Assembly (NCBI RefSeq): GCF_900186865.1 | Contig: NZ_LT906480.1 | Span: 2,188,001-2,252,000 of the forward strand | Direction of reading: 5' to 3' | Length of the DNA: 64,000 nucleotides | Source of the DNA: Stenotrophomonas maltophilia | Lineage (GTDB): Bacteria; Pseudomonadota; Gammaproteobacteria; Xanthomonadales; Xanthomonadaceae | In this document: positions 738 through 26,891 of the stretch, piece by piece | How positions within the stretch are numbered: position 1 is the first letter of the stretch | Layout: every line of letters starts with the position of its first letter | Made by a program: the position numbers and the translations under genes | Notes under the pieces: generated by a model | Database searches by the model: none | What the model was told of the DNA's origin: nothing | What the model saw: the letters and a program-made list of their open reading frames with translations, nothing else

Positions 738-1943
738 GTGAACGAGGTCGTACAGTCCCCCGCCATCCAGCCGCTGCCGAAGTCGGCACCCACGGCTGGC
801 AAGCAGAACCTGCTCGACCTCGATCGCGCGGGCCTGGAGAAGTTCTTCGTCGAGGTTCTCGGCGAAAAGAAGTTCCGTGCCCATCAGGTGATGAAGTGGA
901 TCCACCATCGCTACGTCACCGACTTCGATGAAATGACCGACCTCGGCAAGGTCCTGCGCGCCAAGCTGCAGGCCCATGCCGAGGTGCTGGTTCCCAACAT
1001 CGTGTTCGACAAGCCCTCCGCCGACGGCACCCACAAGTGGCTGCTGGCGATGGGCGTGGATGGCAAGAACGCCATCGAGACCGTGTACATCCCGGACAAG
1101 ACCCGCGGCACGCTGTGCGTGTCCTCGCAGGTCGGTTGCGGCCTGAACTGCACGTTCTGCTCCACTGCTACCCAGGGCTTCAACCGCAACCTGACCACCG
1201 CCGAGATCATCGGCCAGGTGTGGGTTGCCGCGCGCCACCTGGGCAACGTCCCGCACCAGATGCGCCGCCTCACCAACGTGGTGATGATGGGCATGGGCGA
1301 GCCGCTGATGAATTTCGACAACGTCGTGCGCGCCATGAGCGTGATGCGCGACGACCTGGGCTACGGCCTGGCCAACAAGCGCGTGACCCTGTCGACCTCC
1401 GGCCTGGTGCCGCAGATCGACCGCCTGTCTGCCGAAAGCGACGTGTCGCTGGCGGTGTCGCTGCATGCGCCGAACGACGCGCTGCGCGAGACCCTGGTGC
1501 CGCTCAACAAGAAGTACCCGATCGCCGAGCTGATGGCCTCGTGCGCACGCTACCTGCGCGCCAACAAGCGCCGCGAATCGGTCACCTTCGAATACACCCT
1601 GATGAAGGGCATCAACGACAAGCCCGAGCATGCCCGCGAGCTGGCCCGCCTGATGCGCCAGTTCGACAACGCGGTGCAGGCCAAGGATTCGGGCAAGGTC
1701 AACCTGATCCCCTTCAACCCGTTCCCGGGTACCCGCTACGAGCGTTCGGAAGAGGCTCACATCCGCGCCTTCCAGAAGATCCTGCTCGACAGCAACGTGC
1801 TGACCATGGTCCGCCGTACCCGTGGCGACGACATCGACGCCGCCTGTGGCCAGCTCAAGGGCCAGGTGATGGACCGCACCCGCCGCCAGGCGGAGTTCAA
1901 CAAGACGCTGCAGGCGGGGAAGGGGAGCGATGCCGCGGCCTGA
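738..1943 (+). CDS. rlmN: Dual-specificity 23S rRNA/tRNA adenine-C2 methyltransferase RlmN
   Basis: Radical-SAM enzyme that methylates C2 of A2503 in 23S rRNA and A37 in some tRNAs. The iron-sulfur motif CX3CX2C is at Cys134, Cys138 and Cys141. The MGMGEPL motif follows, and the C-terminal DAACGQL carries the cysteine expected for the methyl-transfer intermediate. 401 residues from the GTG start chosen here (MNEVVQ); an in-frame ATG at 636 would overlap ndk by 92 bases and add a non-homologous tail. The end overlaps pilF by 14 bases. Confidence 0.95.
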
Positions 1944-2715
1944 CCGCCTCTGGCTGGTTCTGCTCGCAGGCACGCTGGCCCTCGCGGTCGGCGGCTGCAA
2001 ATCCCATCCCAAGGCCAAGCTTGGCCCGAGCGAGGCGCCGGTCTACTCCGTCCGTGATCCGGAAGGGGTGCGGCAGCAGGTGCGCTGGCAGGAGTTGCTG
2101 ACCCTGGCCGGCCGCGACATCCAGGGCGGCAATCTCGATGCTGCCGAGCGCAAGGCGCGCGAAGCCCAGAAGCTGGTGCCGACGGCCCCCGACGGCCTGG
2201 TCCTGCTTGCGGGCATCGACGAGCGTCGCGGTCGCAGCCAGCAGGCCGGCGAGAACTTCCGCAAGGCTGCCGAGCTGGCGCCGCAACGTGGCGACGTGCT
2301 CAACAACTATGGTGCCTGGCTGTGCCAGCAGGGCCAGGCGGCCGAATCGCTGGTGTGGTTCGATCATGCCCAGCGGGCGCCGGGCAATCCCGCCGTCGCC
2401 GAAGCGCAGTCCAATGCCGGCAGCTGTGCGCTGGATGCAGGCCAGTTCGAGCGTGCCGAGCGCGACCTGCGCGCGGCGCTGTCGGCGCTGCCGGGAAACC
2501 CGGTCGCGCTGGAGGCCATGGCCCAGCTCAGCTTCCGCCAGGGCCGCTACATGGAGGCCCGGGCCTTCGCCGAACGTAGGATTGCGGCTGCACCCGCAAC
2601 GCGTTCCGTGTTACAACTTGCGTCTCAAATCGAAGCGCGGCTGGGTGATCGGGCGGCATCTGACCGCTATCTTCAGCGCATTCGACAGGAATTTCCGCAG
2701 GAAGCGGGCTCCTAA
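1930..2715 (+). CDS. pilF: Type IV pilus biogenesis/stability lipoprotein PilF (PilW)
   Basis: Outer-membrane lipoprotein (pilotin) needed for PilQ secretin multimerisation and pilus stability. The signal peptide ends in a lipobox with Cys23 (AVGGC). The rest is tandem tetratricopeptide repeats, roughly residues 55-250. At 261 residues it is the usual length. It overlaps rlmN by 14 bases and precedes rodZ, the order seen in Pseudomonas and Xanthomonas. Confidence 0.9.
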
Positions 2716-2733
2716 CTCCAGGGTTGATGCATT

Positions 2734-3606
2734 GTGATTGATGACCAGACTGTGAGCGCTCTCGAGACTGCGGCCGGCTGCGGCACCCGCCTGCGCCAGG
2801 CCCGTGAAGCGGCCGGACTGACCCTTGAGGATGTCGGCTCGCGCCTGCGCATGCCGGTCCAGGTGGTCAGGTCGCTGGAGGAAGAGCAGTGGCAGAAGCT
2901 GGGCGCGCCCGTCTTCGTGCGCGGCCAGTTGCGCAGCTACGCGCGCCTGCTCGACGTCGATGTGAGCCAACTGCTGGAGCAGGCCCAGGTGGGTCCTGTC
3001 GTGCCGCCCACCCTGGTCAGCCATACCCATACCCCGCGTGCGCGCCGCATTGCCGAGAATCTCGGCCGGCGCGTGCTGTACGTCGGCATCACCGCCGTGC
3101 TGGCCGTGCCGGTGTGGTTCGCCACCCGCGGCCATTTCGATGGCAGCGCCACGCCGTCGCCGAACACGGCCTCGCTGGACGCGATCCCGGCCGCTGTGCC
3201 GGTAGCTCCGTCCGCTGCGGGTGTCGAGCCGGCAGCCCCGGCTGAAGTCGCGAGCGCCCCGGCCAGCAAGCCGGCCGCAACCCCGTATGTCGCTTCGCTG
3301 TCCCCGGTGCCGCGTTCGGCACCCGCTGCGCCCGCAGCCGCCAATACGCTGGAGATGCAGTTCAGCGGCGACAGCTGGGTCGATATCGGTGGTCCGGACG
3401 GCGCCACGGTCGAAAAGGCGCTGATCAAGTCCGGCGAGAGCCGCAGCTTCACGCCGGGCCAGGTGACCCGGGTGACCCTGGGCAACGCCTCGGCGGTCCA
3501 GGTTCAGCAGAACGGCGCTATCGTCGATCTGACCCCCTACCAGCGAGCCAACGTGGCACGCTTTCAGGTATCCTCTGAAGGCTCCGTAGTCCCGGTTTCG
3601 CACTGA
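2734..3606 (+). CDS. rodZ: RodZ-like helix-turn-helix cell-shape protein
   Basis: Bitopic membrane protein linking MreB filaments to the elongasome. Domains in order: cytoplasmic Xre-type HTH (about residues 14-80), basic linker, one membrane segment (about 112-130), a long Ala/Pro-rich periplasmic spacer, and a C-terminal beta domain of the DUF4115 type (about 205-285). The GTG start is the first plausible one after pilF and gives 290 residues. The DNA-binding fold in RodZ binds MreB rather than DNA. Confidence 0.88.
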   Translation: MIDDQTVSALETAAGCGTRLRQAREAAGLTLEDVGSRLRMPVQVVRSLEEEQWQKLGAPVFVRGQLRSYARLLDVDVSQLLEQAQVGPVVPPTLVSHTHTPRARRIAENLGRRVLYVGITAVLAVPVWFATRGHFDGSATPSPNTASLDAIPAAVPVAPSAAGVEPAAPAEVASAPASKPAATPYVASLSPVPRSAPAAPAAANTLEMQFSGDSWVDIGGPDGATVEKALIKSGESRSFTPGQVTRVTLGNASAVQVQQNGAIVDLTPYQRANVARFQVSSEGSVVPVSH

Positions 3607-3671
3607 GGCGCGGTTTCACCACCTTCGATTAAACCCAATGGTCCCTCCCGATGGGCGGGGCGAGAGTACGC

Positions 3672-4310
3672 ATGGCGATCGACGATCTGCTCGACGAGCA
3701 CGAACAAAGTGAACGCGTCCGCAGCTGGCTGCGGAAGAATGGCGCCAGCATCCTCGGTGGCGTAGCCATCGCGATCGGTGCCATTGCCGGCTGGCAGTGG
3801 TACCAGAAGGATCAGGGCGGCAAGCTGGCCTCGGCCAACGTGGAATACCAGAAGGCCCTGGTCGGTCTTCAGCAGAACAAGCTCGACGACGCTGCCAAGG
3901 CAGTGAAGGCGCTCGAAGCGGGCCCGTCCAGCATCTATGGCGACCTCGCGGCGCTGCAGCTGGCCAAGGCCCAGGTCGACGCCGGCAAGAACGAAGAAGC
4001 GCTGGCCACCCTGCGCGCCGTGAAGGTCGAAAGCGACCTGCAGCGCGTGGTCGACCAGCGTGTGGCCCGCCTGCTGGTGGCCACCGGCAAGAGCGACGAG
4101 GCGATCAAGCTGCTGGGCAGCGCCACCGACAGCAGCAGCCTGGAAATCCATGGCGATGCGCTGATGGCGCAGGGCAAGCGCGATGACGCCCGCGCACAGT
4201 ACGAGAAGGCGCTGAAGTCGCTTGACGTGGCAGCGCCGCAGCGGCGCCTGCTGGAAACCAAGGTTATGGATGCCGGCGGCACGGTCGCCGCCCCTGCGGA
4301 GTCGGTTTGA
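3672..4310 (+). CDS. YfgM-like TPR protein, SecYEG-associated
   Basis: Single-pass inner-membrane protein with a periplasmic TPR domain. YfgM in E. coli is an ancillary SecYEG subunit working with PpiD in periplasmic folding. A cytoplasmic N-terminus (AIDDLLDEHEQSERVR) is followed by one membrane helix (about 25-45) and repeats (50-205). 212 residues. The ATG at 3672 was chosen over the in-frame ATG at 3651 because family members begin with this acidic segment. It directly precedes bamB, as in E. coli. Confidence 0.85.
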   Translation: MAIDDLLDEHEQSERVRSWLRKNGASILGGVAIAIGAIAGWQWYQKDQGGKLASANVEYQKALVGLQQNKLDDAAKAVKALEAGPSSIYGDLAALQLAKAQVDAGKNEEALATLRAVKVESDLQRVVDQRVARLLVATGKSDEAIKLLGSATDSSSLEIHGDALMAQGKRDDARAQYEKALKSLDVAAPQRRLLETKVMDAGGTVAAPAESV

Positions 4311-5518
4311 TGAGTCAGAAGGTCATGATCACCCGCGTCGCCACCGTGCTCCTGATGGGCATGGCCCTGACCGGCTGCAGCACCATGAAGGGCTGGTTCG
4401 CCGGCAAGGACGCGGCAGCGAAGAAGGCCCAGGAGCCGGCTGAGCTGGTCAAGTTCGAGCCGAGCGTCAAGGTCAACAAGGCCTGGTCGGTCAACCTCGG
4501 CAAGGGCGAGCGCCGCATCGGCGTGCGCCAGGGCCCGGCCGTGGCCAACGGCCATGTGTTCGCTGCGGCGATCACCGGCGGCGTGCACGCCATCGACCTG
4601 CAGACCGGCAAGAAGGTCTGGACCTGGGAGCCGCAGAAGGAAAAGAAGAAGCCGAAGCTGCGCCTGTCCGGCGGCCCGGGTGTCGGTGAGGACCTGGTCG
4701 TGATCGGCACGCTCGATGGCCAGGTCATCGCCCTGGACATCAATGACGGCAGCGAGAAGTGGCGCGCCCGTGTTCCGGGTGAGGTCATTGCCGCGCCGGC
4801 CGTGGCCCAGGGCCTGGTGTTCGTGCGCAGCAACGACGGCCGCGTCACCGCGTTCGATGCCGGCAACGGCACGCAGAAGTGGTTCAACCCGAGCGAACTG
4901 CCGGCGCTGACCGTGCGCGGCAACGCGCCGGTGGTCACCGGTCCGGGCGTGTTGTTCATCGGCAAGGACGAAGGCGCGGTTGCCGCGCTGGCCATGCAGG
5001 ATGGGCGTACCCTGTGGGAACAGAACCTTGGCAACGGCGAAGGCCGTACCGAGCTGGACCGCATGGCCGATGTCGACGGTGCCCCGGTGCTGGAGGGCAA
5101 CACCCTCTTCGTGAGCAGCTTCAAGAACCAGACCATGGCCATCGAGGGCCCGACCGGTCGCCCGCTGTGGGCGCGCGACCATGGCGGTGCAGGTGGCGTG
5201 GCGGTGTCGTCGGGCAATGTGTTCGTCACCGACAACAAGGGTGGCGTGTTCGGCCTGGACAAGGCGACCGGCGCTGCCATGTGGTCGCAGACCGAGCTGG
5301 CGCGTCGTTCGCTGACCGGCCCGGCGCTGCACGGTGATTACGTGGTCGTCGGCGACTACAAGGGATACGTGCACTGGTTGAAGACCTCCGATGGTGCGAT
5401 GGCGGCACGGGCGAAGAGTGGCGGTGACGCCCTGCTGGCCCAGCCGGTCGTCGTCGACGGGGTGCTGCTGGTGCAGAACGTGGATGGCAAGCTGACCGCC
5501 TTCCGGTTGGCAAATTAA
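4310..5518 (+). CDS. bamB: Outer membrane protein assembly factor BamB
   Basis: Periplasmic lipoprotein of the BAM complex, an eight-bladed beta propeller that helps BamA insert beta-barrel proteins. Lipobox LTGC with Cys23; PQQ-like blade repeats such as [14 protein letters not shown] and VIALDINDG run through the length. 402 residues. The ATG overlaps the stop of the upstream gene by one base (TGATG), indicating translational coupling. A TTG three bases upstream is an alternative start. Confidence 0.95.
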
Positions 5519-5535
5519 AAATTGGAGTAATCGCG

Positions 5536-6933
5536 ATGCTGCCTTTGGTCGCCCTGGTTGGACGGCCGAATGTCGGCAAGTCGACTATTTTCAATGCGCT
5601 TACGCGCACCCGCGACGCGCTGGTCCATGACCAGCCCGGCGTCACCCGTGACCGCAACTACGGCGTCTGCCGCCTCGACGAGGACAACCATTTCCTCGTC
5701 GTGGATACCGGCGGTATTGCCGGGGAAGACGAAGGCCTGGCGGGTGCCACCACGCGCCAGGCCCGGGCTGCGGCGGCCGAAGCCGATCTGATCCTGTTCG
5801 TCGTCGACGCCCGCGAGGGCACCTCGGCGCTGGACGACGAGATCCTGGCCTGGCTGCGCAAGCTGTCGCGCCCGACGCTGCTGCTGATCAACAAGATCGA
5901 CGGCACCGACGAGGACAGCGTCCGTTCGGAGTTCGCCCGTTACGGCTTCGGCGAGATGCTGACCGTGTCGGCTGCGCACCGCCAGGGCCTGGACGACCTG
6001 CTTGACGAAGTGATCCAGCGCCTGCCGGAAGAAGGCAGCGGCGAAGAGCTGGACAACGATCCGAACCGTATCCGCATCGCCTTCGTCGGACGTCCGAACG
6101 TGGGCAAGTCGACCCTGGTCAACCGCATCCTCGGCGAGGAGCGCATGATCGCCTCCGACGTGCCGGGCACCACCCGCGACTCGATCGCGGTGGACCTGGA
6201 GCGCGATGGACGTGAGTACCGGCTGATCGATACCGCCGGCCTGCGCCGCCGTTCGCGCGTGGACGAGGTCGTCGAGAAGTTCTCGGTGGTCAAGACCATG
6301 CAGTCGATCGAGCAGTGCCAGGTCGCCGTGCTGATGCTGGACGCCACCGAAGGCGTGACCGACCAGGACGCCACCGTGCTCGGTGCCGTGCTCGACGCCG
6401 GCCGCGCGCTGGTGATCGCCATCAACAAGTGGGATGGCCTGACCGAGTACCAGCGCGAACAGGCTGAAACCATGCTGTCGCTGAAGCTGGGCTTCGTGCC
6501 GTGGGCCGAATCGGTGCGCATTTCGGCCAAGCACGGCTCGGGCCTGCGCGAGCTGTTCCGTGCGGTGCACCGCGCGCACGAATCGGCGAACAAGACCTTC
6601 ACCACCAGCGAAGTGAACAAGGCGCTGGAAGTGGCCTACGAGACCAACCCGCCGCCGACCATCCGCGGCCACGTCTCCAAGCTGCGCTACGTGCACCCGG
6701 CCGGCGCAAACCCGCCGACCTTCATCGTGCACGGCACCCGCCTGAAGGAACTGCAGGAGTCGTACAAGCGCTACCTGGAGAACTTCTTCCGCAAGCGCTT
6801 CAAGCTGATCGGCACGCCGGTGAGCTTCATCTTCCGCGAGGGCACCAACCCGTACGAGGGCAAGAAGAACGTCCTCACCGAGCGGCAGGTCAAGGCCAAG
6901 CGGCGCTTGATGAAGCACGTCAAGGGCAAGTGA
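5536..6933 (+). CDS. der: Ribosome biogenesis GTPase Der (EngA)
   Basis: Essential tandem GTPase required for 50S subunit maturation. Two G domains each carry GRPNVGKST (first at residues 8-16, second near 180), with NKID and NKWD for guanine specificity and DTGG/DTAG switch motifs. A C-terminal KH-like domain follows and the tail is lysine rich. 465 residues, normal for the family. A GGAG ribosome site lies just before the ATG. Seventeen bases separate it from bamB. Confidence 0.98.
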
Positions 6934-16367: not shown

Positions 16368-17933
16368 ATGACCAACATCCATAACGACAAGATCCTGATT
16401 CTCGATTTCGGCGCGCAGTACACGCAGCTGATCGCCCGCCGCATCCGCGAGCTGGGCGTCTACTGCGAAATCTGGGCGTGGGACCACAACCCGGCCGAGA
16501 TCGCCGCGTTCGGCGCCAAGGGCATCATCCTGTCGGGTGGCCCGGAATCGACCACGCTGCCGGGCGCCCCGGCCGCGCCGCAGGAAGTGTTCGACAGTGG
16601 CCTGCCGATCTTCGGCATCTGCTACGGCATGCAGACCCTGGCCGCACAGCTGGGCGGTGCCACCGAAGCCGCTGACCAGCGCGAATTCGGCCACGCCGAA
16701 GTGAACGTGATCAACCCGGATGCACTGTTCAAGGGTCTGAGCGACCACGGCGGCGAGCCGAAGCTGAATGTCTGGATGAGCCACGGCGACCACGTCTCCG
16801 TTGCACCGCCGGGCTTCACCATCACCGCCACCACCGACCGCATTCCGGTGGCCGCCATGGCCAACGAAGAAAAGCGCTGGTACGGCGTGCAGTTCCACCC
16901 GGAAGTGACCCACACCCTGCAGGGCCAGGCGCTGCTGCGCCGCTTCGTGGTGGATGTGTGCGGCTGCCAGACCCTGTGGACCGCCGCCAACATCATCGAC
17001 GACCAGATCGCCCGCGTGCGCGAACAGGTGGGCGATGACGAAGTGATCCTGGGCCTGTCCGGCGGCGTCGATTCGTCCGTGGTCGCTGCGCTGCTGCACA
17101 AGGCCATCGGCGAGAAGCTGACCTGCGTGTTCGTGGACACCGGCCTGCTGCGCTGGCAGGAAGGCGACCAGGTGATGGCGATGTTTGCCGAGCACATGGG
17201 CGTGAAGGTGGTGCGCGTGAACGCCGCCGACCGTTATTTCGCCGCGCTGGAAGGCGTGAGCGACCCGGAAGCCAAGCGCAAGATCATCGGCAACCTGTTC
17301 GTTGAGATCTTCGACGAAGAGTCCAGCAAGCTGAAGAACGCCAAGTGGCTGGCGCAGGGCACCATCTACCCGGACGTGATCGAGTCGGCCGGCAGCAAGA
17401 CCGGCAAGGCGCATGTGATCAAGAGCCACCACAACGTGGGCGGCCTGCCGGAGCACATGAAGCTGGGCCTGGTGGAGCCGCTGCGCGAGCTGTTCAAGGA
17501 CGAAGTGCGCCGCCTGGGCGTTGAGCTCGGCCTGCCGCGCACCATGGTCTACCGCCATCCGTTCCCGGGCCCGGGCTTGGGCGTGCGCATCCTGGGCGAG
17601 GTAAAGCCGGAATACGCCGAACTGCTGGCCAAGGCCGATGCCATCTTCATTGATGAGCTGCGCAAGGCCGACCTGTACGACAAGACCAGCCAAGCGTTTG
17701 CCGTGTTCCTGCCGGTGAAGTCGGTGGGCGTGGTGGGCGATGCGCGGGCGTATGAGTGGGTGATTGCGCTGCGCGCGGTGGAGACGATCGACTTCATGAC
17801 CGCACATTGGGCGCATCTGCCGTATGAGTTCCTGGGGACGGTGAGCAACCGGATCATCAATGAGTTGCGGGGGGTTTCAAGGGTTGTCTATGACATCTCG
17901 GGGAAGCCGCCGGCGACTATTGAGTGGGAATGA
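16368..17933 (+). CDS. guaA: GMP synthase (glutamine-hydrolysing)
   Basis: Converts XMP to GMP using ATP and glutamine. Class I glutaminase (about 8-200; GICYGMQ with Cys85, FHPE histidine-glutamate pair), ATP-pyrophosphatase domain with P-loop LSGGVDSS (about 230-237), and C-terminal dimerisation domain ending PPATIEWE. 521 residues. The last 90 or so bases use codons unlike the rest of the gene (for example TCA, GTT, TCT, ATT), consistent with replacement of the 3' end by an integrated element. Confidence 0.97.
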
Positions 17934-17936
17934 GTT
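17900..17936. other. Probable island attachment site in the 3' end of guaA
   Basis: The 3' end of guaA is a known integration target of tyrosine integrases of genomic islands. Here GC content drops directly after the stop, an integrase remnant follows, and the final guaA codons are atypical. No second copy of this sequence was found by eye in the window, so the core and boundaries are inferred. Confidence 0.5.
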
Positions 17937-17944
17937 GAAAGAAC

Positions 17945-17976
17945 GAGGGCGCCGAGAGGCGCTCTCTATTTTTATA
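17945..17976 (+). terminator. Terminator after guaA
   Basis: GAGGGCGCC/GGCGCTCTC stem with GAGA loop and one mismatch, followed by TATTTTTATA. Located 12 bases after the guaA stop. From its end to about 18422 the DNA is lower in GC and holds no gene that could be recognised. Confidence 0.65.
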
Positions 17977-18422
17977 GAATCTATCACCTCTCCATTTCGA
18001 TCGATATTGACGTCTCAAGTCACTACATGCGTCTGGTCCGATTCGGCTGCCACAACGCCGCGCTCTATTCTGGAGCGGGGCGCTATACACTGCTTTTTGG
18101 ATAAGCAGGGCAAATCCTCTTCAGTGGCTCATCAACCACTCACTTCCTTTCAGCGAGAGAGTCCAAATGATCCCACTGCAAGACATTGAAATCTTTACCG
18201 ACACTCGGAAGAGCATGGGTGTGGTGCTCAGCAGTCATGGTAGCGTTCTTTCACGATGACTCCAGTGCCGCAATTCGCTGGACTACGCCACGGCTCTATA
18301 TCGCAGGTTTATCAATTTCTTGGGCGAGTTCAATATATGTCGGTGCTTTCCGAGGCATGACCTGGCTTCCCCTGCGGGGCTCACATGGGACTCTTGGAAA
18401 CCGCGTCTTCCGAGGAGTCATC

Positions 18423-18713
18423 ATGGCGAAAATCAAGCTCACCACGTCGGCAGTCGATGCGGCACTACCCCCAAGACAGGGCCATTGAGCTGCAGCACAC
18501 TGTGGCGGCGGGCTTCTTGTGCAAGCTCAATCCAACGGGTCGTATTCATCTTCCAGTAGCGCACGAACGCAAGCGAGTGTTGCAAACCCGCCACGGAGCT
18601 AGTAGGGCGAACGGGCGGTCGATGAGGTGCGGACGATGGCGCAGGGGTGGCTGGTCAAGGTGCGCCAGGAGGAGGGGGGCTCATTCGCCGAGCAAGGACT
18701 GATCTAGTATTGG
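18423..18713 (+). pseudogene. Decayed tyrosine-type integrase (N-terminal remnant)
   Basis: Three reading frames together resemble the N-terminus of phage-type integrases: MAKIKLTTSAVDAA in the first, IELQHTVAAGFLCKLNPTGR in the second (with the usual arm-binding motif), and VDEVRTMAQGWLVKVRQ in the third. At least two frameshifts separate them, and the catalytic domain with its Arg-His-Arg-Tyr residues is absent. It sits next to guaA, where an island integrase is expected. The island can no longer be excised by its own integrase. Confidence 0.72.
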
Positions 18714-18779
18714 AGTTTTCGCCCACTTTTATTTATCCAGCACCAGGCATCTGATTAAGATTATTTATGTTTACTCGGA

Positions 18780-19334
18780 TTAGTCACTGCTTTCAGTCAG
18801 GGAGCGAACCAATCTAAATAGCTCGGCCTGATATTCTGCGTCGTGAAGAGCATCATGATCTCCCTTTTTCTTGGGATGCACAACTTTATCAATAGCGCTT
18901 GATCTGGTTTCGTACCATGAGCAACCCGTAGCGCCCATAAAGAGCGCCTTGATGTCTAGGGCCGTAAAGCCGAATGGATTATATCCAAGATATTTCAGGA
19001 AATAGTAATTTACAAATCCCCAATCAAATGGGGCATTTAATCCAACAAAAACTGGAATGCTGCCCTTGGGGGTATTTGTGGTGATCCAGGATGAAAATTC
19101 CGTCATGGCTTCAGTTGGAGTTACCCCTATATTCTCGGCCTGCTCCAAAGTAAGGCCTGTGATCGCCAGCGCTTCTGCAACCGACTTATCACTAATTGGT
19201 TTTAACGATGCCGAAAATGATATTTCTGGCTGGTACACCAGGCAGGCGCCCACAGTAAGCATGCTGTGCTCTCCGACAACAGGGCCAGCAGTTTCAATGT
19301 CAACCGATATAAAAACTTCAGGTTTCTTGTTCAT
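18780..19334 (-). CDS. CBASS-associated DEDDh 3'-5' exonuclease
   Basis: 184-residue DnaQ/RNase T-like fold exonuclease: ExoI motif VDIETAG (Asp12, Glu14), a central NAPFDWGFV with aspartate, and ExoIII HDALHDAEYQ giving the DEDDh set. Exonucleases of this kind are a recognised accessory protein of CBASS operons (named Cap18 in the literature, as far as I recall). Last gene of the operon, 26 bases after the ATPase gene. It could degrade phage DNA or turn over nucleotides or signals; the role is not fixed by sequence. Codon use is AT-richer than in the host genes. Confidence 0.82.
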   Translation of the reverse strand: MNKKPEVFISVDIETAGPVVGEHSMLTVGACLVYQPEISFSASLKPISDKSVAEALAITGLTLEQAENIGVTPTEAMTEFSSWITTNTPKGSIPVFVGLNAPFDWGFVNYYFLKYLGYNPFGFTALDIKALFMGATGCSWYETRSSAIDKVVHPKKKGDHDALHDAEYQAELFRLVRSLTESSD

Positions 19335-19360
19335 TTTCTCATCCGGTAATCGGTTTTTAT

Positions 19361-20257
19361 TCAGCCGGCCATGACAGGGGGTGGCTCCAATTCTGCAGCA
19401 GCCTGATAAAAGTGTTCGGCCTTTAGTGCGGAGTTTGGAAACGCCATGGATACAGCTGCCGGATACAAGCGTGTACGAATATCAGAATAAGTCCAAGCGG
19501 GTCGATTTTCACTTGCGGATGTCGCCTCGACCAACTTCTTTATTTCGGTTGCCGAAAGACCCATGTCCCCCAAATCGCTTGTGAACAGTTCATTTCGCTC
19601 TTCATCAGTGGGGCGTGTAAACTCCTCAACAATCGACGCACGTCGAATGACTGCTGCATCAAGAGCTGCCAATCGGTTTGTGCAAAGGATGGCGAAGATG
19701 CGCCCGCCATGCTTCCGAATACCGTCTATAGATTGAATCAGGGTGTTCACGCCGACCTTGTCTTCATGGTGACTGTGATGTTGGCTGCGGGATGCCCCTA
19801 AAGAGTCACCTTCGTCAATAATGAGGAAGGCTCGACCCTTTCCCGGCCCAATAGATCTGGAAATATCTTCGAATGCTTGGGTGATGAGTGTTCCCATCTC
19901 ACCCACCTTGCCGGTTCCGCGAACTTTGTTGCTCAGCTTGTAGAGAATTGCGTCTTCAATTTTAGCGTCGCGAGCAAGGCGATTTGCGATCGCCTCTGCA
20001 TTTGCAGTTTTCCCCGTTCCCACATCGCCATGGAAAATAGCTAATGGATACTGTTCATTTAGTAGTTCAATGACCGCGAGCTTCTTGTCATGATGCTTTT
20101 GACTCCATCGCTCAAGTTCATTAGATTGCAGAATTAGCTGGAGGCGCTTTTGTATGCGCTGGTAACGCCCTTCAAAGCCTAGTAGTTTCTTGGATAGGAT
20201 ATCAAGCTGCGTCGTCGGAAGGTTTGTCTTTACCTCGAATACGGATGAGCTGCTCAT
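19361..20257 (-). CDS. TRIP13/Pch2-like AAA ATPase of type III CBASS (Cap6)
   Basis: AAA+ ATPase of 298 residues. Walker A GDVGTGKT (77-84), Walker B FLIIDE (144-149), sensor-1 CTN and an arginine pair RRAS follow. In HORMA-type CBASS this ATPase disassembles the HORMA-cyclase complex and resets signalling. The start ATG overlaps the HORMA stop (ATGA) with AGGAAGGA upstream; a longer frame to 20464 lies wholly inside the HORMA gene and was rejected. Confidence 0.88.
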   Translation of the reverse strand: MSSSSVFEVKTNLPTTQLDILSKKLLGFEGRYQRIQKRLQLILQSNELERWSQKHHDKKLAVIELLNEQYPLAIFHGDVGTGKTANAEAIANRLARDAKIEDAILYKLSNKVRGTGKVGEMGTLITQAFEDISRSIGPGKGRAFLIIDEGDSLGASRSQHHSHHEDKVGVNTLIQSIDGIRKHGGRIFAILCTNRLAALDAAVIRRASIVEEFTRPTDEERNELFTSDLGDMGLSATEIKKLVEATSASENRPAWTYSDIRTRLYPAAVSMAFPNSALKAEHFYQAAAELEPPPVMAG

Positions 20258-20742
20258 GAAAAATCCTTCCTGTTGGTGCCAAAGCCATTGCTGCTGTATC
20301 CGCGCCCCGCGGAAGAGGTTAGGCCTTTGTGACTGGTGTCCGTAGACGAAGGTACCCATGAAATCTTTAGGGGGAGACTCGCGCGCTTGTCCGAGGATGA
20401 CGAATCGGTATAGCGTAAATGAATTCGAATCCACCCTCCTTTGTCCTTTGGTGTCAGAGGCCATGTTACGCCGCCAGGCCGCTCGGTTTCCGTGGCGCCC
20501 TCTTTCTGGAATTCATATTTGATGGCGCGCACTTCTGATGTGCCATTCATGAGCGTCACGTCAGCATATTCGAGATAATCCTTCTTCGCCAATAGTTCTA
20601 TGTCGTGAGCATAGTTTGATGCCTCATCTTCGGTCATAGCCTTGGTGGTGGTTGCAATGATGATCAAGTCGGCTTTGACGCTGCGCATGACCTTTTCAAC
20701 ATCTGCAACTATGTAGCTACTAGTGCTCGAATAAGTGCTCAA
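20254..20742 (-). CDS. Bacterial HORMA-domain protein of type III CBASS (Cap7)
   Basis: 162 residues. Pattern of a bacterial HORMA: N-terminal helix with STSSYIVADVEKVMRSVKAD, a beta core ending near 130, and a Gly/Ser-rich tail (SSAGRGYSSNGFGTNRKDF) that resembles a closure peptide. HORMA proteins bind a phage-derived peptide and then activate the cognate cyclase. The start is TTG, 3 bases after the cyclase stop, supported by AAGGA seven bases upstream. The assignment rests on context as much as on sequence. Confidence 0.8.
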   Translation of the reverse strand: MSTYSSTSSYIVADVEKVMRSVKADLIIIATTTKAMTEDEASNYAHDIELLAKKDYLEYADVTLMNGTSEVRAIKYEFQKEGATETERPGGVTWPLTPKDKGGWIRIHLRYTDSSSSDKRASLPLKISWVPSSTDTSHKGLTSSAGRGYSSNGFGTNRKDFS

Positions 20743-20745
20743 TTT

Positions 20746-21693
20746 TTAGTCCTTGGTCTTGAAGCGACCGCCAAAAATCTCTTTCCATACTTCGTTATCA
20801 TTTTCGACAGATGCATATGTTGCCGTATCCAAAGCGGATTCGGCTGCCTTGGCTATAAGGATCTGCTCATCCTTAGTAATGCGGGATGCTACGTTGTTCT
20901 CTGGACTCACAGGGTCAACAATAATTACAGGGGTGTCAAAATTGCTAGTTGGCTTTCCACAATTTTCTGGAAAGTCAATGCGTTCCCCAAGTTTTGTACT
21001 GGCGATATACCCTAAGAATTCTCTGAAGCGTTTCTCAATAGACTCGGCGGGACCATCTCTATCAAGTAGGTAGCCGAAGATTAGTTCGATATGGAAGGAC
21101 TTTAGGCCTGGAACGTCGTGAAAGTGTTTCCACCGTTATGCTAAACGGACCAACGTCCTAAAGTGTTTATCCTTATCCTTCCTGGTTTTGACAAACTGAA
21201 TGTGGCACGGCGCACAAGTGAGATTTTTTGCGCCGCTCTGAATGTCGAACTGCCAGCCGTGGTCAGCATCAAAACTATCTTGAAGAACAGGTACAACGTC
21301 TACCTCTAGGCCACTTTTGACGAAAGTCACCTTTGCTGCGCGACGCTGAATCTCGAAGTCCTCAACTTTCTTTGTCGGATAAATGTCTATTAAAAGATCG
21401 TATATTTTATTGCAAAGGCTTTCGTACGATTTTCCGTCTTCATCGACGCCTGTGACATAAAAGACAACATCAACATCCGTAGGATAGTCATCAACCCTTC
21501 GAAGAATTGTGTACTTTGCAAACGAACCAGCCTTAACGACCTTTGTGACCTTTATCTTTGACTTGTCGGTGATGCGTTTCTTTAGCTCAGAAACAAGATT
21601 GTCCACCTGGGCGTGATACTCTTTGCGCTTCTCGCCTGGAAGACGCAGTACGTTGTGGTCGAAGTATTCAAGATCTGAATTTGCTAGCGGCAT
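20746..21693 (-). pseudogene. CBASS CD-NTase (cyclic oligonucleotide synthase) with in-frame TAA
   Basis: Second gene of the operon. Codons 1-185 encode the nucleotidyltransferase core: GS at 56-57, DVD at 73-75 and the third catalytic aspartate Asp132. Codon 186 is TAA (21138 down to 21136), between RTLVRLA and RWKHFHDV. The same frame then stays open for 129 codons (LKSFHIELIFGYLL, helical C-terminal domain) to a TAA just before the HORMA gene. A lysine (AAA) is the likely ancestral codon, one substitution away. AGGA precedes the ATG. Type III CBASS cyclases of this class are about 310-320 residues, matching the 315 codons here. Confidence 0.85.
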
Positions 21694-21732
21694 TTTTTTT
21701 CCTGGTTTTTAGAAAATCGACTTCTCTCATTC

Positions 21733-23262
21733 CTATAATGTCATGCCATTTGCAATGTAATCAACAGTGACGGCGGCGGCTGCTTGTGCGGCCAGTAGAT
21801 GAAATCTATTATCTTTTTTTGAGTCACCAAAATCACTAATGCCGCGCACCATCAGTACCGGCTTGCCAAAATTAGCGCATGCAGCAAATAAGCCTGCGCC
21901 TTCCATTTCGGCGACCTCTATTTTTCCGTGAATCTCTCGCATCCCTAGAAATTTTTCTGGATCACGAAGGAGTTTTTCGCCGCTGGCGACCGTCGCCGTC
22001 TTAGGTATGACGCCTTTGGCGACAGGACCAGCCTCAACTTTTTCGGGGAATTCGATGCCTAGAGCTTGGTAACTCTTCAAGAGGCGAGTTTCAAGGCCTG
22101 CCCTGTTGGATAAATAGGAGCTAACGTCTTGGCGAACACGCATCGTAAGCCTAGTGATCTCTGGCCGTGCCTCACTCTGGCCGCCTTCAACAAGTCCCGC
22201 GCCCTCATAGGCGACGATACGTTCTGCCAGAACCACTTCTCCCAGCGCACATTTTTCTCGCAGACCAGCCGCAATGCCCAGCATGATCACGCTGCCAGGT
22301 CGCAGATTACTTAACAGCATGCTAGTTACTGACGCTGCATCTACGTTGCCTGCACCCGCGAAGCAAGCTAAAGCGCAGCTTGCTGTCGTTCCACCACGCT
22401 TGGCAACAGGTGCTTTCCAAACGTGAAGACCGTTCTCAGTAGTGATGTGTTCAGCATCCTCCGCAATACCAAAAGCTTGCTTGGCGGCGGCCAACTCCAC
22501 GTCTAGAGCAGTTAGCACTAATACATCAGGAGGAAGGGCATCAATTCTGGCTAGTTCTTCCTCATAGAAAACACTTACGATACGAGTGCATATTTCTGAC
22601 AATGTAAGTACGGGCTCTTGCAAAGAAAGAGCGGGAAGAAATTTGACAACCCTATTTCCACTATTCGGCATGTATGTCAGAGGGTTGGCTTGGAAATTCT
22701 TAAGGACACCAATCGCACCCAGACCGTCCTCGCTATTTGCACCCAACTGCAAATCAAGCGGTAGAACAGGCAAGAGCTTCTTGGTCATTTTGCGCGCGCG
22801 ATCCAGTACACCCTTGCCACCGCCCAGGGCCACCATCGCAGTAGCATGCTCAACTTGCTCATCGCCGACGTTGCCGCCTGTCAGCACCTCCTCTTCCAGT
22901 GGGACGAGTTCTGCGACTCCTCGTGCGACCATGCCCATGAGCAACTTACGTTGCTCAGGATTCGCCTTGACTTGAAGGCGTTCCTGCGAAGCCACGATTT
23001 TTAGACGAGCGTCAGAGCTGTTGCCGGGCGTTAATCTGTCTACCGCTTTAGCGACCGTCCAGTCGAACAAGAGCGCCTTCCCATCTCCATTGATCGGCTC
23101 GGCTGCGACGTAAACGACAAAGCCGCCACCAGCTTTAAGGACTTCCTCAACAAGGGTATCGACAAAAGCGTGCGCTCTATCGATGAGCTCATTCTCGGTG
23201 GTGTTCGAGATGCTTCCGGCAAGGAGGATATAGGTTGAAGCCAGCATCATGGCATTTGTCAT
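21733..23262 (-). CDS. CBASS effector: SLOG-like domain fused to PNP-family nucleosidase (Cap17-like)
   Basis: 509 residues. N-terminal half (about 10-190) has a Rossmann/SLOG look: YILLAGS at the start and ALGGGKGVLDRA with a GGGKG loop. C-terminal half (about 265-505) is a purine-nucleoside phosphorylase/MTA-nucleosidase fold: VLVLTALDVEL, LGIAAGL, AEMEGAG and RGISDFGD. Nucleosidase effectors of this family in CBASS and other defence systems have been shown to cleave ATP. First gene of the operon. The ATG at 23262 with GGGA upstream was chosen; the frame extends 17 codons further up without support. Confidence 0.82.
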   Translation of the reverse strand: MTNAMMLASTYILLAGSISNTTENELIDRAHAFVDTLVEEVLKAGGGFVVYVAAEPINGDGKALLFDWTVAKAVDRLTPGNSSDARLKIVASQERLQVKANPEQRKLLMGMVARGVAELVPLEEEVLTGGNVGDEQVEHATAMVALGGGKGVLDRARKMTKKLLPVLPLDLQLGANSEDGLGAIGVLKNFQANPLTYMPNSGNRVVKFLPALSLQEPVLTLSEICTRIVSVFYEEELARIDALPPDVLVLTALDVELAAAKQAFGIAEDAEHITTENGLHVWKAPVAKRGGTTASCALACFAGAGNVDAASVTSMLLSNLRPGSVIMLGIAAGLREKCALGEVVLAERIVAYEGAGLVEGGQSEARPEITRLTMRVRQDVSSYLSNRAGLETRLLKSYQALGIEFPEKVEAGPVAKGVIPKTATVASGEKLLRDPEKFLGMREIHGKIEVAEMEGAGLFAACANFGKPVLMVRGISDFGDSKKDNRFHLLAAQAAAAVTVDYIANGMTL

Positions 23263-23500
23263 GAGTGATCCCGATTGATTCTGTGCCTTCGCGCATAGTG
23301 CTCTGCGCGCCAATTACTTGATCCCCGTTGGCGTAGTCGATAAGTTTGAACCACTAGGCTAGCGGTGCCATTTTGATGCATGCGGGGTGATTTTAAATTT
23401 TAAAGGCTCTGTCGCACATTTTATTGATCTGGGGACTTTTAACGAAGGCTTGTATCTAGCCACTGGTGTCATCAGTACGTGTCCTCCAAGGATGATCGCG

Positions 23501-23918
23501 TTACTTGTTAACTTCGTCATAGGGTAACTCAAGTTCATTCCAAAGTTCTTCTTCTGTAAGTCGCTTGAAGTCTTCCGTCAAATTTTTGACTAGCGCTGGG
23601 ATGCACCTTCCAGGGCTGATGTGGCAATCAGGGCGAATCATCCGCGATCTAGGCGAACCGTCACGACCCCAAAACTCTTCCAAGACACTACGCGTGTTGA
23701 TGACGAAGGCATCCCGCAAGGTAGTACGGCCCGAGAGAATTCGTAACGTCTTGTCGCTAACGCGGGCGCGGGTCTTGCCTGCCTGCCGAGAAAAGCTGCC
23801 GGGTAGTGGAGATCGTATCTGCGATCTTCTGCAACGCCATGCTCTTGAATTGGTGGGCAGTACGCAATTGAGTGTCATTGAACTCAGGCTGCTGACGATT
23901 AGGAAACAAGGTGTTCAT
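23501..23918 (-). pseudogene. Frameshifted hypothetical gene in the island
   Basis: Two overlapping frames look like parts of one protein. The first begins at the ATG at 23918 (MNTLFPNRQQPEF...MALQKIADTIS) and stops at 23757. The second runs on from about 23790 (KTRARVSDKTLRILSG, then LTEEELWNELELPYDEVNK) to the stop at 23501. A one-base change near GGCAGGCAGGC would join them into roughly 139 residues. No family recognised. It lies 238 bases upstream of the CBASS operon on the same strand, so a regulator is conceivable but not shown. Confidence 0.35.
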
Positions 23919-24132
23919 TCAGGCTCGTTTGAGCAAGTACTTATGGGGTCACTTCGTGGCGTCATCCTTGAGGCGGGGCAGCGTGCGGCCCATCAGCTAG
24001 CGAGGTGGACCCGGAAGAGATGGTTGTAGGCAGCTTTCGGCAGAAGGAGAGGGCTTGGACGACGGGAGTTCTTCTTTGGGGGTGGGAGGGGGGGCGGGAT
24101 TACTGCGCGGCTGATGTTTGTCTGTGAGTTCG

Positions 24133-24489
24133 TCACTCCGGTCTGACTTCGTGGCAAGCCCACTCAACCAACCCCCGGCAAGCCAGAAACAACCCATCAA
24201 CCACCCCCTCATCCAAATGCCGCTCCGGGTCCGCTGCCACCCGGCAGCGGTCCGCCGAGTGGAGCACCTCCAGCACCGTTAGCAGCCCGACCAACGCACG
24301 CTCGCTCCGCGCCAGGCTCACACGGCGGCCGGGTGACACATCGGTTTCCGGCCAAGGGTGCCCATCAGCGCCCTCGCAGCCGCGCATGCGCTTGAGGATG
24401 CCGAGCAGGGAGTTCAGGTCGGGCAGGGGAGTGTCGTCGTTGATGGGTTCAACAATGGTGTACGAGGAAAAGCTGTCGGATTCGTTCAT
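24133..24489 (-). CDS. Small hypothetical protein (DUF6124-like)
   Basis: 118-residue soluble protein beginning MNESDSF, with an Arg/Ala-rich helical middle (SLARSERALVGLLTVLEVL). It resembles small proteins of unknown role common in Pseudomonas and Xanthomonadaceae, often in phage-like surroundings; this family link is tentative. The ATG at 24489 was chosen because the longer frame runs back into a structured non-coding-looking region. The 214 bases between it and the frameshifted gene show no feature. Confidence 0.5.
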   Translation of the reverse strand: MNESDSFSSYTIVEPINDDTPLPDLNSLLGILKRMRGCEGADGHPWPETDVSPGRRVSLARSERALVGLLTVLEVLHSADRCRVAADPERHLDEGVVDGLFLACRGLVEWACHEVRPE

Positions 24490-25037
24490 GGCTTCGGCTT
24501 CCGTGGCTGTGCTTAACAGCGCCACCGCGAAGAGGTGGCGGACGATGCGTGGCTGCAAACCGGAAGAAGCGATGTCATAAACCGGTGGGCCCGAAAGCCC
24601 CCACGCACCGCCCGCCAGAAAGGCCGACGGATTGCCCGCCGGCACCGGTTAAGGACGGTGCCGACGGGCAAGCGCAAACTACAGACATCGCTTTCTTCGG
24701 GTTTGCAGACCCGAGCCACCCGTTTTCGGTGGCGCGCCATGGTGTTTACGCACCCGCTTCGAATGCCAATAGAAATTCGCGAAGGAATCGCAGAATCCGA
24801 GAGCGAAGAACTATTGTTGCACGCACCCTTCGTGCAGCACGCGACGCCAGTCGACGCATTCGCGCAGCTGCTCTGCTGATGGCGAATCAAAGTGGCGCAA
24901 TCGCCCATGCCACAAGCGAATAGCGCGACGGCCTTCTTTGCAACAGTTCTTAGTTCGCCTCGCCAAGCAACGGCGCGCGATCAGCTACACACCCCGAAAA
25001 TCGGTTCAAACCCGACACTGTTAACAAGCTCGCAGCT
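24490..25037. other. Gene-poor structured region at the right side of the island
   Basis: Contains a long inverted repeat (listed separately). Small ORFs occur on both strands, including a + strand one at 24549-24923 whose translation is Arg-rich and resembles spurious proteins annotated in P4-like immunity/ash regions. From 24930 to 25037 nothing is seen. The region probably holds the right end of the island, but no attachment repeat was found. Confidence 0.35.
24553..24708. repeat. Imperfect inverted repeat, 24-25 base arms, 107-base loop
   Basis: Arm 24553-24576 reads CTGCAAACCGGAAGAAGCG followed by ATGTC; arm 24684-24708 is its reverse complement apart from one extra base and one substitution. 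Arms of this kind could form a long RNA stem. P4-like satellites regulate immunity with such complementary RNA segments; that comparison is an inference. Confidence 0.6.
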
Positions 25038-25955
25038 TCAAACAACGCCAGGCTCAGCCGCATTTCCCACCAGCAACTCAATCATCGCCCGCGCCGCCGC
25101 CGACTGCCGCCGATGCGGCGCATAGATCACCGAGAACGGGCGCGATCTCCCGCGCAACTGCGGCAGCACCTCCACCAGCTCCCCACGCTGCAGCCGCTCG
25201 CGCACGATGAACTCGTAGCTCTGGCAGATGCCGATGCCCTGTTCGGCCAGCGACACCACGCCCAGCACATCGTCCGAAGTCTCAATCGACGAACGCGGCA
25301 CCCAATCCACATCCCGCCCGACATCCCGAAACACCCATGGCGCCAGCCGCCCTGTACGCGGCATGACGAAGGGCAGGCACAGGTGCTGCTGCAGGTCGTC
25401 CAGCGTCTGCGGTGTGCCGCGTCGCTGCAGGTAGTCCGGTGCGGCCACCAGCACCAGCGGAGCGTCCTCCAGCTTTCGTGCCACCAGCCCGCTGTCCGGC
25501 AGCTGGCCCAGGCGGATGGCCAGGTCGAAGCCCTCGGCCACCAGGTCCACGTTGCGGTTGGTGATGTTCAGTTCCACCTGCACCTGCGGGTACTGCTGCG
25601 CAAAGCGCGCCAGCACGGGCGGCAGCCGGTAGTGGCCATAGGTGGTGGGCACACTCAGGCGCACGCGGCCGGCCAGCGCACCGTCCTGGGCCAGTACGTC
25701 GCGCTCGGCGTCGTCCAGCAGGCCGAAGGCGGTGCGCACCTGTTCCAGATAGAGCCGCCCGGCGTCGGTCAGGCCCACGCGGCGGGTGGTCCGCTGCAGC
25801 AGCTGGCGGCCCAGCCGCGCTTCCAGGCGGGTGACCGCGCGGCTCAGCACCGAGGGCGTGGTGGACAGCGCCACCGCCCCGGCCGTGAACGAGCCGTGCT
25901 CGACCACTGCCAGGAACACCTCCACATCGCCCAGGTAGTCGAACTTGCGGCTCAT
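25038..25955 (-). CDS. LysR family transcriptional regulator
   Basis: 305 residues: winged HTH at about 8-66 (FLAVVEHGSFTAGAVALSTTPSVLSRAVTRLEARLG pattern, given here in part), then a periplasmic-binding-like effector domain (92-290). Divergent from the DJ-1/PfpI gene with 96 bases between starts, so it probably controls that gene and itself. The C-terminal end abuts the island's right side. GC and codon use return to host values here. Confidence 0.9.
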   Translation of the reverse strand: MSRKFDYLGDVEVFLAVVEHGSFTAGAVALSTTPSVLSRAVTRLEARLGRQLLQRTTRRVGLTDAGRLYLEQVRTAFGLLDDAERDVLAQDGALAGRVRLSVPTTYGHYRLPPVLARFAQQYPQVQVELNITNRNVDLVAEGFDLAIRLGQLPDSGLVARKLEDAPLVLVAAPDYLQRRGTPQTLDDLQQHLCLPFVMPRTGRLAPWVFRDVGRDVDWVPRSSIETSDDVLGVVSLAEQGIGICQSYEFIVRERLQRGELVEVLPQLRGRSRPFSVIYAPHRRQSAAARAMIELLVGNAAEPGVV

Positions 25956-26020
25956 TTTGCTCTCCGGGGAACAGATGTTTTGCGATGAGGCCAATTTATC
26001 GCCGCTGCGGCGATGAATAA

Positions 26021-26891
<871 letters not shown>

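What the first reader, a model, noticed from the sequence alone, without database searches (positions are those of the whole stretch)
21136..21138. In-frame ochre stop splits the CBASS cyclase after its catalytic core
The frame is open for 185 codons, then TAA, then 129 more codons in the same frame that look like the missing helical domain and end right before the HORMA gene. All three catalytic aspartates precede the stop. AAA to TAA (Lys) is one change. Neighbours remain intact, so the event is recent, or the stop is read through, or two half-proteins act together. Loss would disarm the switch while keeping the effectors harmless.
Basis: partly seen in the sequence, partly recalled or inferred. 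Interest (0 to 1): 0.75.

Follow-up and report, generated by a model that had tools for sequence, protein, structure and literature searches.

The report
Broken switch gene in phage-defence operon
A bacterial anti-phage alarm system still has its effector enzymes, but the gene for the enzyme that would sound the alarm is cut in two by a stop signal, so this copy is most likely a switched-off version of a well-known defence system.

Summary
Observation correct. On the minus strand the CBASS cyclase is open for 185 codons, meets TAA at 21138-21136, then runs 129 codons to a stop 3 bases before HORMA. Both pieces match the same cyclase families in sequence. The operon is a type III CBASS: Cap17, CdnC, HORMA, TRIP13, Cap18. 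In 43 of 43 relatives of equal length the position holds one and the same amino acid; the second piece keeps 49 of 49 invariant positions but has no ATG/GTG/TTG for 75 codons. In a relative's model the break lies inside a helix. None of 65 tRNAs found reads UAA. Best reading: a loss-of-function cyclase on an island with a broken integrase, at a known defence hotspot (guaA-pgrR). An identical second half is catalogued on a contig other than the window's, and the nearest relative of the second half seen is also stand-alone and partly reads in another frame. So a lone sequencing error is unlikely, and the break may not be private to this genome. Ordinary; low interest.

The parts
21139..21693 (-). 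First 185 codons of the CdnC-type CBASS cyclase (nucleotidyltransferase core; D73, D75, D132)
   Evidence: PDLC00808 E 1.2e-71, NF041116 210.8 bits; PDB CdnC 6p80 E 6.7e-17
21136..21138 (-). In-frame TAA that interrupts the cyclase
   Evidence: 43 of 43 relatives of length 315 have an amino acid here, always the same one
20746..21135 (-). Second part of the cyclase frame, 129 codons and final TAA; no ATG/GTG/TTG before codon 262
   Evidence: PDLC00808 E 1.1e-38, NF041116 114.5 bits
21733..23262 (-). Cap17-type effector (Cap17-like N-terminal domain plus PNP domain), open frame
   Evidence: PF18178 183.8 bits, PF01048 59.6 bits, PDLC00759 838 bits; start set by comparison with L002
20254..20742 (-). 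HORMA (Cap7) gene, open frame, TTG start 3 bases after the cyclase's final stop
   Evidence: PF18138 116.5 bits, PDLC00886 218 bits
19361..20257 (-). TRIP13-like AAA+ ATPase (Cap6), open frame, overlaps the HORMA end by 4 bases
   Evidence: PDLC00914 402.6 bits; start set by comparison with L002
18780..19334 (-). Cap18-type 3'-5' exonuclease, open frame
   Evidence: PDLC00753 291.8 bits, PF00929 39.3 bits
18246..18669 (+). Remnant of an integrase (upstream region and 5' end only, frame broken)
   Evidence: 74% DNA identity to the 5' region of the integrase ORF in L002, 81-82% to G008 and G051
16368..17933 (+). guaA (GMP synthase), conserved left flank of the variable site
   Evidence: PF00958, PF00117; conserved to about window 17965 in the nearer relatives
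25038..26558 (-). ORF with a LysR-type regulator (residues 210-498), conserved right flank of the variable site
   Evidence: PF00126, PF03466; conserved from about 24133 in four relatives and in part in a fifth

Best explanation
This is a disabled type III CBASS operon. A nonsense change ends CdnC translation inside the helix that spans residues 178-191 in a relative's model. The 185-residue product keeps the catalytic aspartates but lacks the C-terminal lobe (shown: frame, family match, helix position in the relative; inferred: no activity). Without the cyclase no cyclic oligonucleotide is made on infection, so Cap17 (named ATP nucleosidase by Pfam) stays off (inferred). Ribosomes also stop 394 bases before the HORMA start. 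In the five nearer relatives inspected HORMA starts 2-5 bases after the cyclase stop, so HORMA and TRIP13 expression probably falls too (inferred polarity). The operon sits at the guaA-LysR (pgrR) variable site, a named S. maltophilia defence island, beside a broken integrase, so it can no longer excise by its own means (inferred).
For: Both halves match one family in order. 43 of 43 relatives of length 315 read through that position with one and the same residue. 116 of the 120 listed hits to the first half are 300 aa or longer. 0 of 13 other genomes with a homologous cyclase have a stop in it, though 12 of these are only 32-34% identical. No ATG/GTG/TTG for 75 codons after the stop. Stop mid-helix in a model of mean pLDDT 87.5 whose best PDB matches are CdnC. 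No UAA-reading tRNA among 65 found. One SMODS match in the genome. Island GC 45-53% against 62-68% in the flanks. Integrase remnant. In E. coli upec-117 protection depends on CdnC and Cap17 (PMC9122588, passages).
Against: The second half shows almost no decay: 49 of 49 invariant positions kept, Ka/Ks 0.065 against the Brenneria copy, C/N divergence ratio within the range of intact pairs. Cap17, HORMA, TRIP13 and Cap18 keep open frames. A retained function would look the same as a very recent loss. No expression or activity data exist here.
Confidence: 0.85

Rival explanations
1. Sequencing or assembly error: the gene is really intact in this strain.
For: The second half is preserved, and a single base is enough.
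Against: A stand-alone protein equal to the window's codons 219-315 except for its start residue (P0246, 96 of 97) is catalogued with 2 member sequences on 3 contigs, the longest 768,014 bases, which is not the window's 5,004,261-base contig. A gene caller would hardly call it alone if the frame upstream were open (inference). It could be the same isolate assembled again. No reads were seen.
Confidence: 0.06
2. Translational read-through or recoding makes some full-length cyclase, keeping the system at a low, safe level.
For: The second half looks constrained.
Against: 0 of the 65 tRNAs found at E <= 0.001 reads UAA; the tRNA-Sec present reads UGA. 43 of 43 relatives of equal length have no stop there. 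UAA is recognised by both bacterial release factors (general knowledge).
Confidence: 0.04
3. Split cyclase: two separately made halves assemble into a working enzyme.
For: Stand-alone second parts exist in the protein collection: 16 clusters of 23 candidates at E <= 1e-5. Two are 132-aa proteins that start near the window's break, MAKRW....
Against: Here there is no ATG/GTG/TTG for 75 codons. The break is mid-helix in a relative's model. The nearest stand-alone relative, P0244, differs from the window at 12 of 14 positions of 236-249, where 7 positions are invariant in 43 intact relatives. Several of the 16 lie on contigs under 4,000 bases and may be fragments.
Confidence: 0.03
4. The remainder (Cap17, HORMA, TRIP13, Cap18) is kept for another role, for example effectors driven by a signal made elsewhere in the cell.
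For: Open frames with low Ka/Ks relative to L002.
Against: No second SMODS match in the genome. A search for the DncV-like domain found nothing, but its controls did not ring either, so it shows nothing; other cyclase families were not searched. Low Ka/Ks mostly reflects the time before the break.
Confidence: 0.05

Closest known systems
E. coli upec-117 type III CBASS (Cap17, CapW, CdnC, Cap7 HORMA, Cap6 TRIP13, Cap18, Cap19), PMC9122588 (passages seen)
   Same: Same core gene content: Cap17, CdnC, HORMA, TRIP13 and 3'-5' exonuclease; catalytic aspartates at the same numbers (73, 75).
   Different: Here the cyclase is interrupted. None of the genome's 5 WYL matches lies in the window, so no CapW is beside the operon. 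No Cap19-like gene follows Cap18. The five genes run in one direction.
E. coli MS115-1 CdnC:HORMA:Trip13 (PDB 6p80, 6p8v, 6u7b)
   Same: Best sequence and fold match of P0003, the intact relative 91% identical in the first half.
   Different: 31% identity by Foldseek; its effector is NucC (recalled; NucC is among the PDB molecule names), here Cap17 and Cap18.
Brenneria alni NCPPB 3934 island (L002)
   Same: Same five genes in the same order, cyclase 88% identical in the first half.
   Different: Cyclase open throughout. After the exonuclease come a DUF1016/YhcG nuclease gene and a 399-aa integrase ORF; in the window the first was not found and the second is a remnant.
Stenotrophomonas maltophilia defence island #13 between guaA and pgrR (PMC11680222, passages seen)
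   Same: Same left flank (guaA) and a LysR-family gene on the right (that pgrR is a LysR-type regulator is recalled); described there as the most diverse island.
   Different: Seen in passages only; they mention CBASS in general and no cyclase interruption. Supplementary tables were not available.

Membership tests
Type III CBASS | CD-NTase with its catalytic core (GS...DxD and third Asp) | tested here: met
   First 185 residues: PF18144 44 bits, NF041116 210.8 bits against a cut-off of 200; D73, D75, D132 by alignment
Type III CBASS | CD-NTase encoded as one uninterrupted protein of about 315 residues | tested here: not met
   TAA at 21138-21136; 43 of 43 relatives of length 315 uninterrupted at this position
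Type III CBASS | HORMA domain protein beside the cyclase | tested here: met
   PF18138 116.5 bits
Type III CBASS | TRIP13-like AAA+ ATPase | tested here: met
   PDLC00914 402.6 bits, PF00004 63.7 bits
Type III CBASS | Effector gene in the operon | tested here: met
   Cap17: PF18178 and PF01048; exonuclease: PDLC00753
Type III CBASS | Cyclic oligonucleotide made on phage infection, protection of the culture | not testable with these tools
   Needs expression and phage assays
upec-117-like CBASS | CapW (WYL) repressor beside the operon | tested here: not met
   5 WYL matches in the genome, none within the window
upec-117-like CBASS | Cap19 three-helix membrane protein after Cap18 | tested here: not met
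   No candidate between Cap18 and guaA. Of 4 plasmid relatives fetched, 3 have a protein with predicted membrane helices there (2 of them cut by the stretch) and 1 has none in the 480 bases held; L002 has none directly after the exonuclease
Split cyclase with two translated halves | Own common start codon for the second half | tested here: not met
   First ATG/GTG/TTG after the stop is GTG at codon 262; a rare ATT start at 219 was used by a gene caller

The most novel reading that the evidence does not exclude
The stop is not mere decay but a held-off state: the cell keeps the effectors and regulators ready while the cyclase is silent, the state is shared by several strains (P0246 on another contig, P0244 as a sister), and it can be left again by mutation under phage pressure.
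Probability: 0.05. Interest if true: 0.6.

Novelty: new member of a known kind. Interest (0 to 1): 0.2.

Why it matters
It shows that gene-by-gene defence annotation can count a probably dead system as live: the first half alone passes the NCBIfam cut-off for a CBASS cyclase. It is also a clear case of a defence system whose trigger gene is interrupted while its effectors stay open, at a site where other species of the genus hold other defence genes, one of them a complete type II CBASS. If sister strains carry the same stop with open effectors, the survival of silent defence operons could be studied directly.

Tried and rejected
Viral contigs: 13 stretches matched a pattern, none encodes a relative. 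Plasmids: 53 records with a match, all in the 60-80% identity band, 12 covering at least 80% of the query. E. coli: 8 of 5,426 genomes match in part, none with a place over 80% of the query. Direct repeats around the island: 11 short families, no att site assigned. Rfam over 17500-25200: one match, outside the operon. The class and phylum surveys found only 3 further cyclases, all open, so they give no useful rate of breakage. DncV-like domain in the own genome: no match, and no control rang, so uninformative. An empty site was not found; the six relatives looked at hold other cargo. Considered and rejected: a frameshift instead of a stop (lengths add up to 315 without a gap); a second SMODS cyclase to compensate. 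Literature on broken CBASS cyclases: searches (20 of 109 papers listed; 3 of 3 listed) were judged by titles and starts of abstracts, and PMC10121019 by passages; none of what I saw describes one. Passages were also seen of PMC10952713 (Cap17 in CBASS types I and III, degradation of (d)ATP) and PMC10419184 (role of HORMA and TRIP13).

Full report
What is there. On the minus strand of the window an ORF of 185 codons (21693-21136) ends in TAA, and the same frame runs on for 129 codons to a TAA at 20748-20746. The two pieces are consecutive parts of one protein family: PADLOC cyclase PDLC00808 positions 3-187 and 199-324 of 325, NCBIfam NF041116 positions 1-182 and 190-317 of 317. Counting the stop as one position the length is 315, the same as most of the close relatives. 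The genome (G000, one contig of 5,004,261 bases) has one copy and one Pfam SMODS match.

The operon. Upstream lies a Cap17-type effector (PF18178 plus PF01048); downstream lie HORMA (PF18138), a TRIP13-like ATPase and a 3'-5' exonuclease of the Cap18 type. This is the core content of the tested E. coli upec-117 type III CBASS, where protection against phage lambda depended on CdnC and Cap17, not on Cap18's active site, and was strongly affected by a stop in cap19 (PMC9122588; passages seen, not the whole text). Its catalytic-dead CdnC is D73N/D75N; the window's cyclase has aspartates at 73 and 75. No WYL (CapW-type) gene lies in the window (5 in the genome, all elsewhere). No Cap19-like gene follows Cap18 in the window. 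Of 4 plasmid relatives fetched, 3 have a protein with predicted membrane helices there (two of them cut by the fetched stretch), 1 has none in the 480 bases held, and the Brenneria locus has none directly after the exonuclease, so its absence is not counted as a second lesion.

Is the stop an interruption of a normally whole protein? Of the 55 proteins P0003-P0057 (the closest hits), 43 are exactly 315 long and were compared. The 12 dropped are nine of 316-318 aa and three short ones (203, 219, 283). In 43 of 43 the position of the stop is occupied by one and the same amino acid. Of the 120 listed hits (of 1,619 found) 116 are 300 aa or longer and 4 are shorter (203, 219, 239, 283). In the genome surveys 13 other genomes carried a homologous cyclase (6 of 91 genomes, 4 of 395, 1 of 369, 2 of 398; the samples overlap and each n includes G000). 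None of the 13 has a stop in the match, but 12 of them are only 32-34% identical and one 62%. One search used the first half only; the open frames there are 322-359 aa.

Can the product work? An AlphaFold2 model of an intact relative (P0003, 42 sequences, mean pLDDT 87.5) puts the stop inside the helix 178-191, with the helices 199-213, 219-233, 274-297 and 300-307 after it. Its best PDB matches are the E. coli CdnC structures 6p8v, 6u7b and 6p80. The first piece therefore holds the catalytic aspartates but lacks the C-terminal lobe and ends mid-helix. The second piece has no ATG, GTG or TTG until codon 262; a gene caller has used ATT at 219. All 65 tRNA matches of the genome at E <= 0.001 were read with ARAGORN in stretches that cover them: no anticodon reads UAA; one tRNA-Sec (UCA) is present. 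These results speak against read-through and against a split enzyme.

How old? Against the Brenneria copy, Ka/Ks is 0.037 for the first half and 0.065 for the second; the other four genes lie at 0.041-0.065. Synonymous sites are saturated (Ks above 1), so this is a weak clock. The window keeps 81 of 82 positions invariant among the 43 relatives in the first half and 49 of 49 in the second. The ratio of second-half to first-half divergence is 1.69 (median of 20 comparisons, range 1.38-2.22) against 1.43 (5-95%: 0.88-2.14) in 374 pairs of intact relatives: within the range, somewhat to the high side. Taken alone this says recent.

Two results complicate 'private and recent'. A search with the second half (16 proteins of 23 candidates at E <= 1e-5) lists P0246, 97 aa, which equals the window's codons 219-315 except for its first residue (96 of 97). 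It has 2 member sequences on 3 contigs, the longest 768,014 bases, so it occurs outside the window's contig, perhaps in other strains, perhaps in another assembly of the same isolate. And P0244 (122 aa, JGI, contig 26,729) is the nearest relative of the window's second half that I saw: 102 of 108 residues equal outside 236-249, against 94 of 108 for the best full-length relative. It too is a stand-alone second part. In the stretch 236-249 it differs from the window at 12 of 14 positions and resembles the window's DNA read in the next frame, although 7 of those 14 positions are invariant in the 43 intact relatives. That looks like decay in a sister copy. Its DNA could not be read here, so whether it has the same stop is unknown. 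Other stand-alone parts lie on longer contigs as well (P0248, named from Pseudomonas mandelii JR-1, 6,778,052 bases; P0254, 597,175; P0253, 31,741), so broken or partial cyclases of this family recur.

Side effects on the rest of the operon. In 4 of 4 plasmid copies inspected HORMA starts with ATG 2-3 bases after the cyclase stop, in Brenneria 5 bases after it, also ATG. The window has TTG 3 bases after the stop. In four more distant loci (L003, L004, L005, L057) the HORMA start was not assigned; the sequence there would allow a start that overlaps the stop, ATG in three and GTG in one, so a non-ATG start need not be a lesion. In the window and in the 4 plasmid copies TRIP13 overlaps the HORMA end by 4 bases. 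Such spacing usually means coupled translation (general knowledge), so the early stop should lower HORMA and TRIP13 as well. This is inference.

Place. The left flank is conserved to about window 17965 (end of guaA) in the nearer relatives. The right flank is conserved from about 24133 in G015, G053, G082 and G045 and in part in G064, up to a LysR-family gene. Between them GC falls to 45-53% against 62-68% outside. Six relatives were looked at on the right side of guaA (for G046 only the left flank was matched, and not every ORF was tested): G015 has a complete type II CBASS (cyclase, E1-E2, JAB, SAVED-2TM); G045 has type I restriction genes with PrrC; G046 has type I methyltransferase and specificity genes with PrrC; G082 has type III restriction genes with DrmD-like and AbiU-like proteins; G064 has an AbiTii-like protein; G053 gave one weak match. 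PMC11680222 names the guaA-pgrR site in S. maltophilia as defence island #13, the most diverse one (passages seen). The integrase is only a broken 5' remnant at 18246-18669. By the coordinates, about 2 kb that in Brenneria hold the rest of the integrase and a DUF1016 nuclease gene are absent here.

Verdict. Observation confirmed. It is an interrupted copy of a known system, most likely without function as CBASS (confidence 0.85). Read-through, split enzyme and sequencing error are each unlikely. Against my reading stand the good state of the second half and of the effectors, which a recent loss explains but does not prove, and the lack of any expression data.

Noticed in passing
L051 (G015:C81:21800-28700), 1126-5564: The same guaA site in another species of the genus holds a complete type II CBASS (cyclase, E1-E2, JAB, SAVED-2TM effector), so one chromosomal site carries different CBASS types in different species.
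   Followed up: partly
window 24475-24750, with 24531-24622 (-): A C4-antisense-RNA match (Rfam RF01695, 60 bits) lies in an element of about 200 bases that recurs at roughly 70-80% identity at many places of related genomes and at 7 other listed places of this one: a dispersed repeat with a phage-type regulatory RNA.
   Followed up: no
P0034 and P0039: Two other truncated cyclases, one of them named from Pseudomonas cannabina, lose similarity within a few codons of each other near residues 202-208; a shared insertion point is possible.
   Followed up: no
P0243 and P0249: Two stand-alone 132-aa second parts from divergent cyclases (79% and 60% identical to the window's) both begin with MAKRW at the same place, near the window's stop.
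   Followed up: partly
P0218: A partial Cap17 (291 aa, 93% identical, longest contig 110,626 bases) named from Stenotrophomonas maltophilia: a related island in that species, perhaps also broken.
   Followed up: no
window 20740-20742: HORMA begins with TTG where the Brenneria copy and four plasmid copies have ATG.
   Followed up: yes
L002 6131-8394: The Brenneria island carries a DUF1016/YhcG nuclease gene between the exonuclease and the integrase ORF; it was not found in the window's island.
   Followed up: partly
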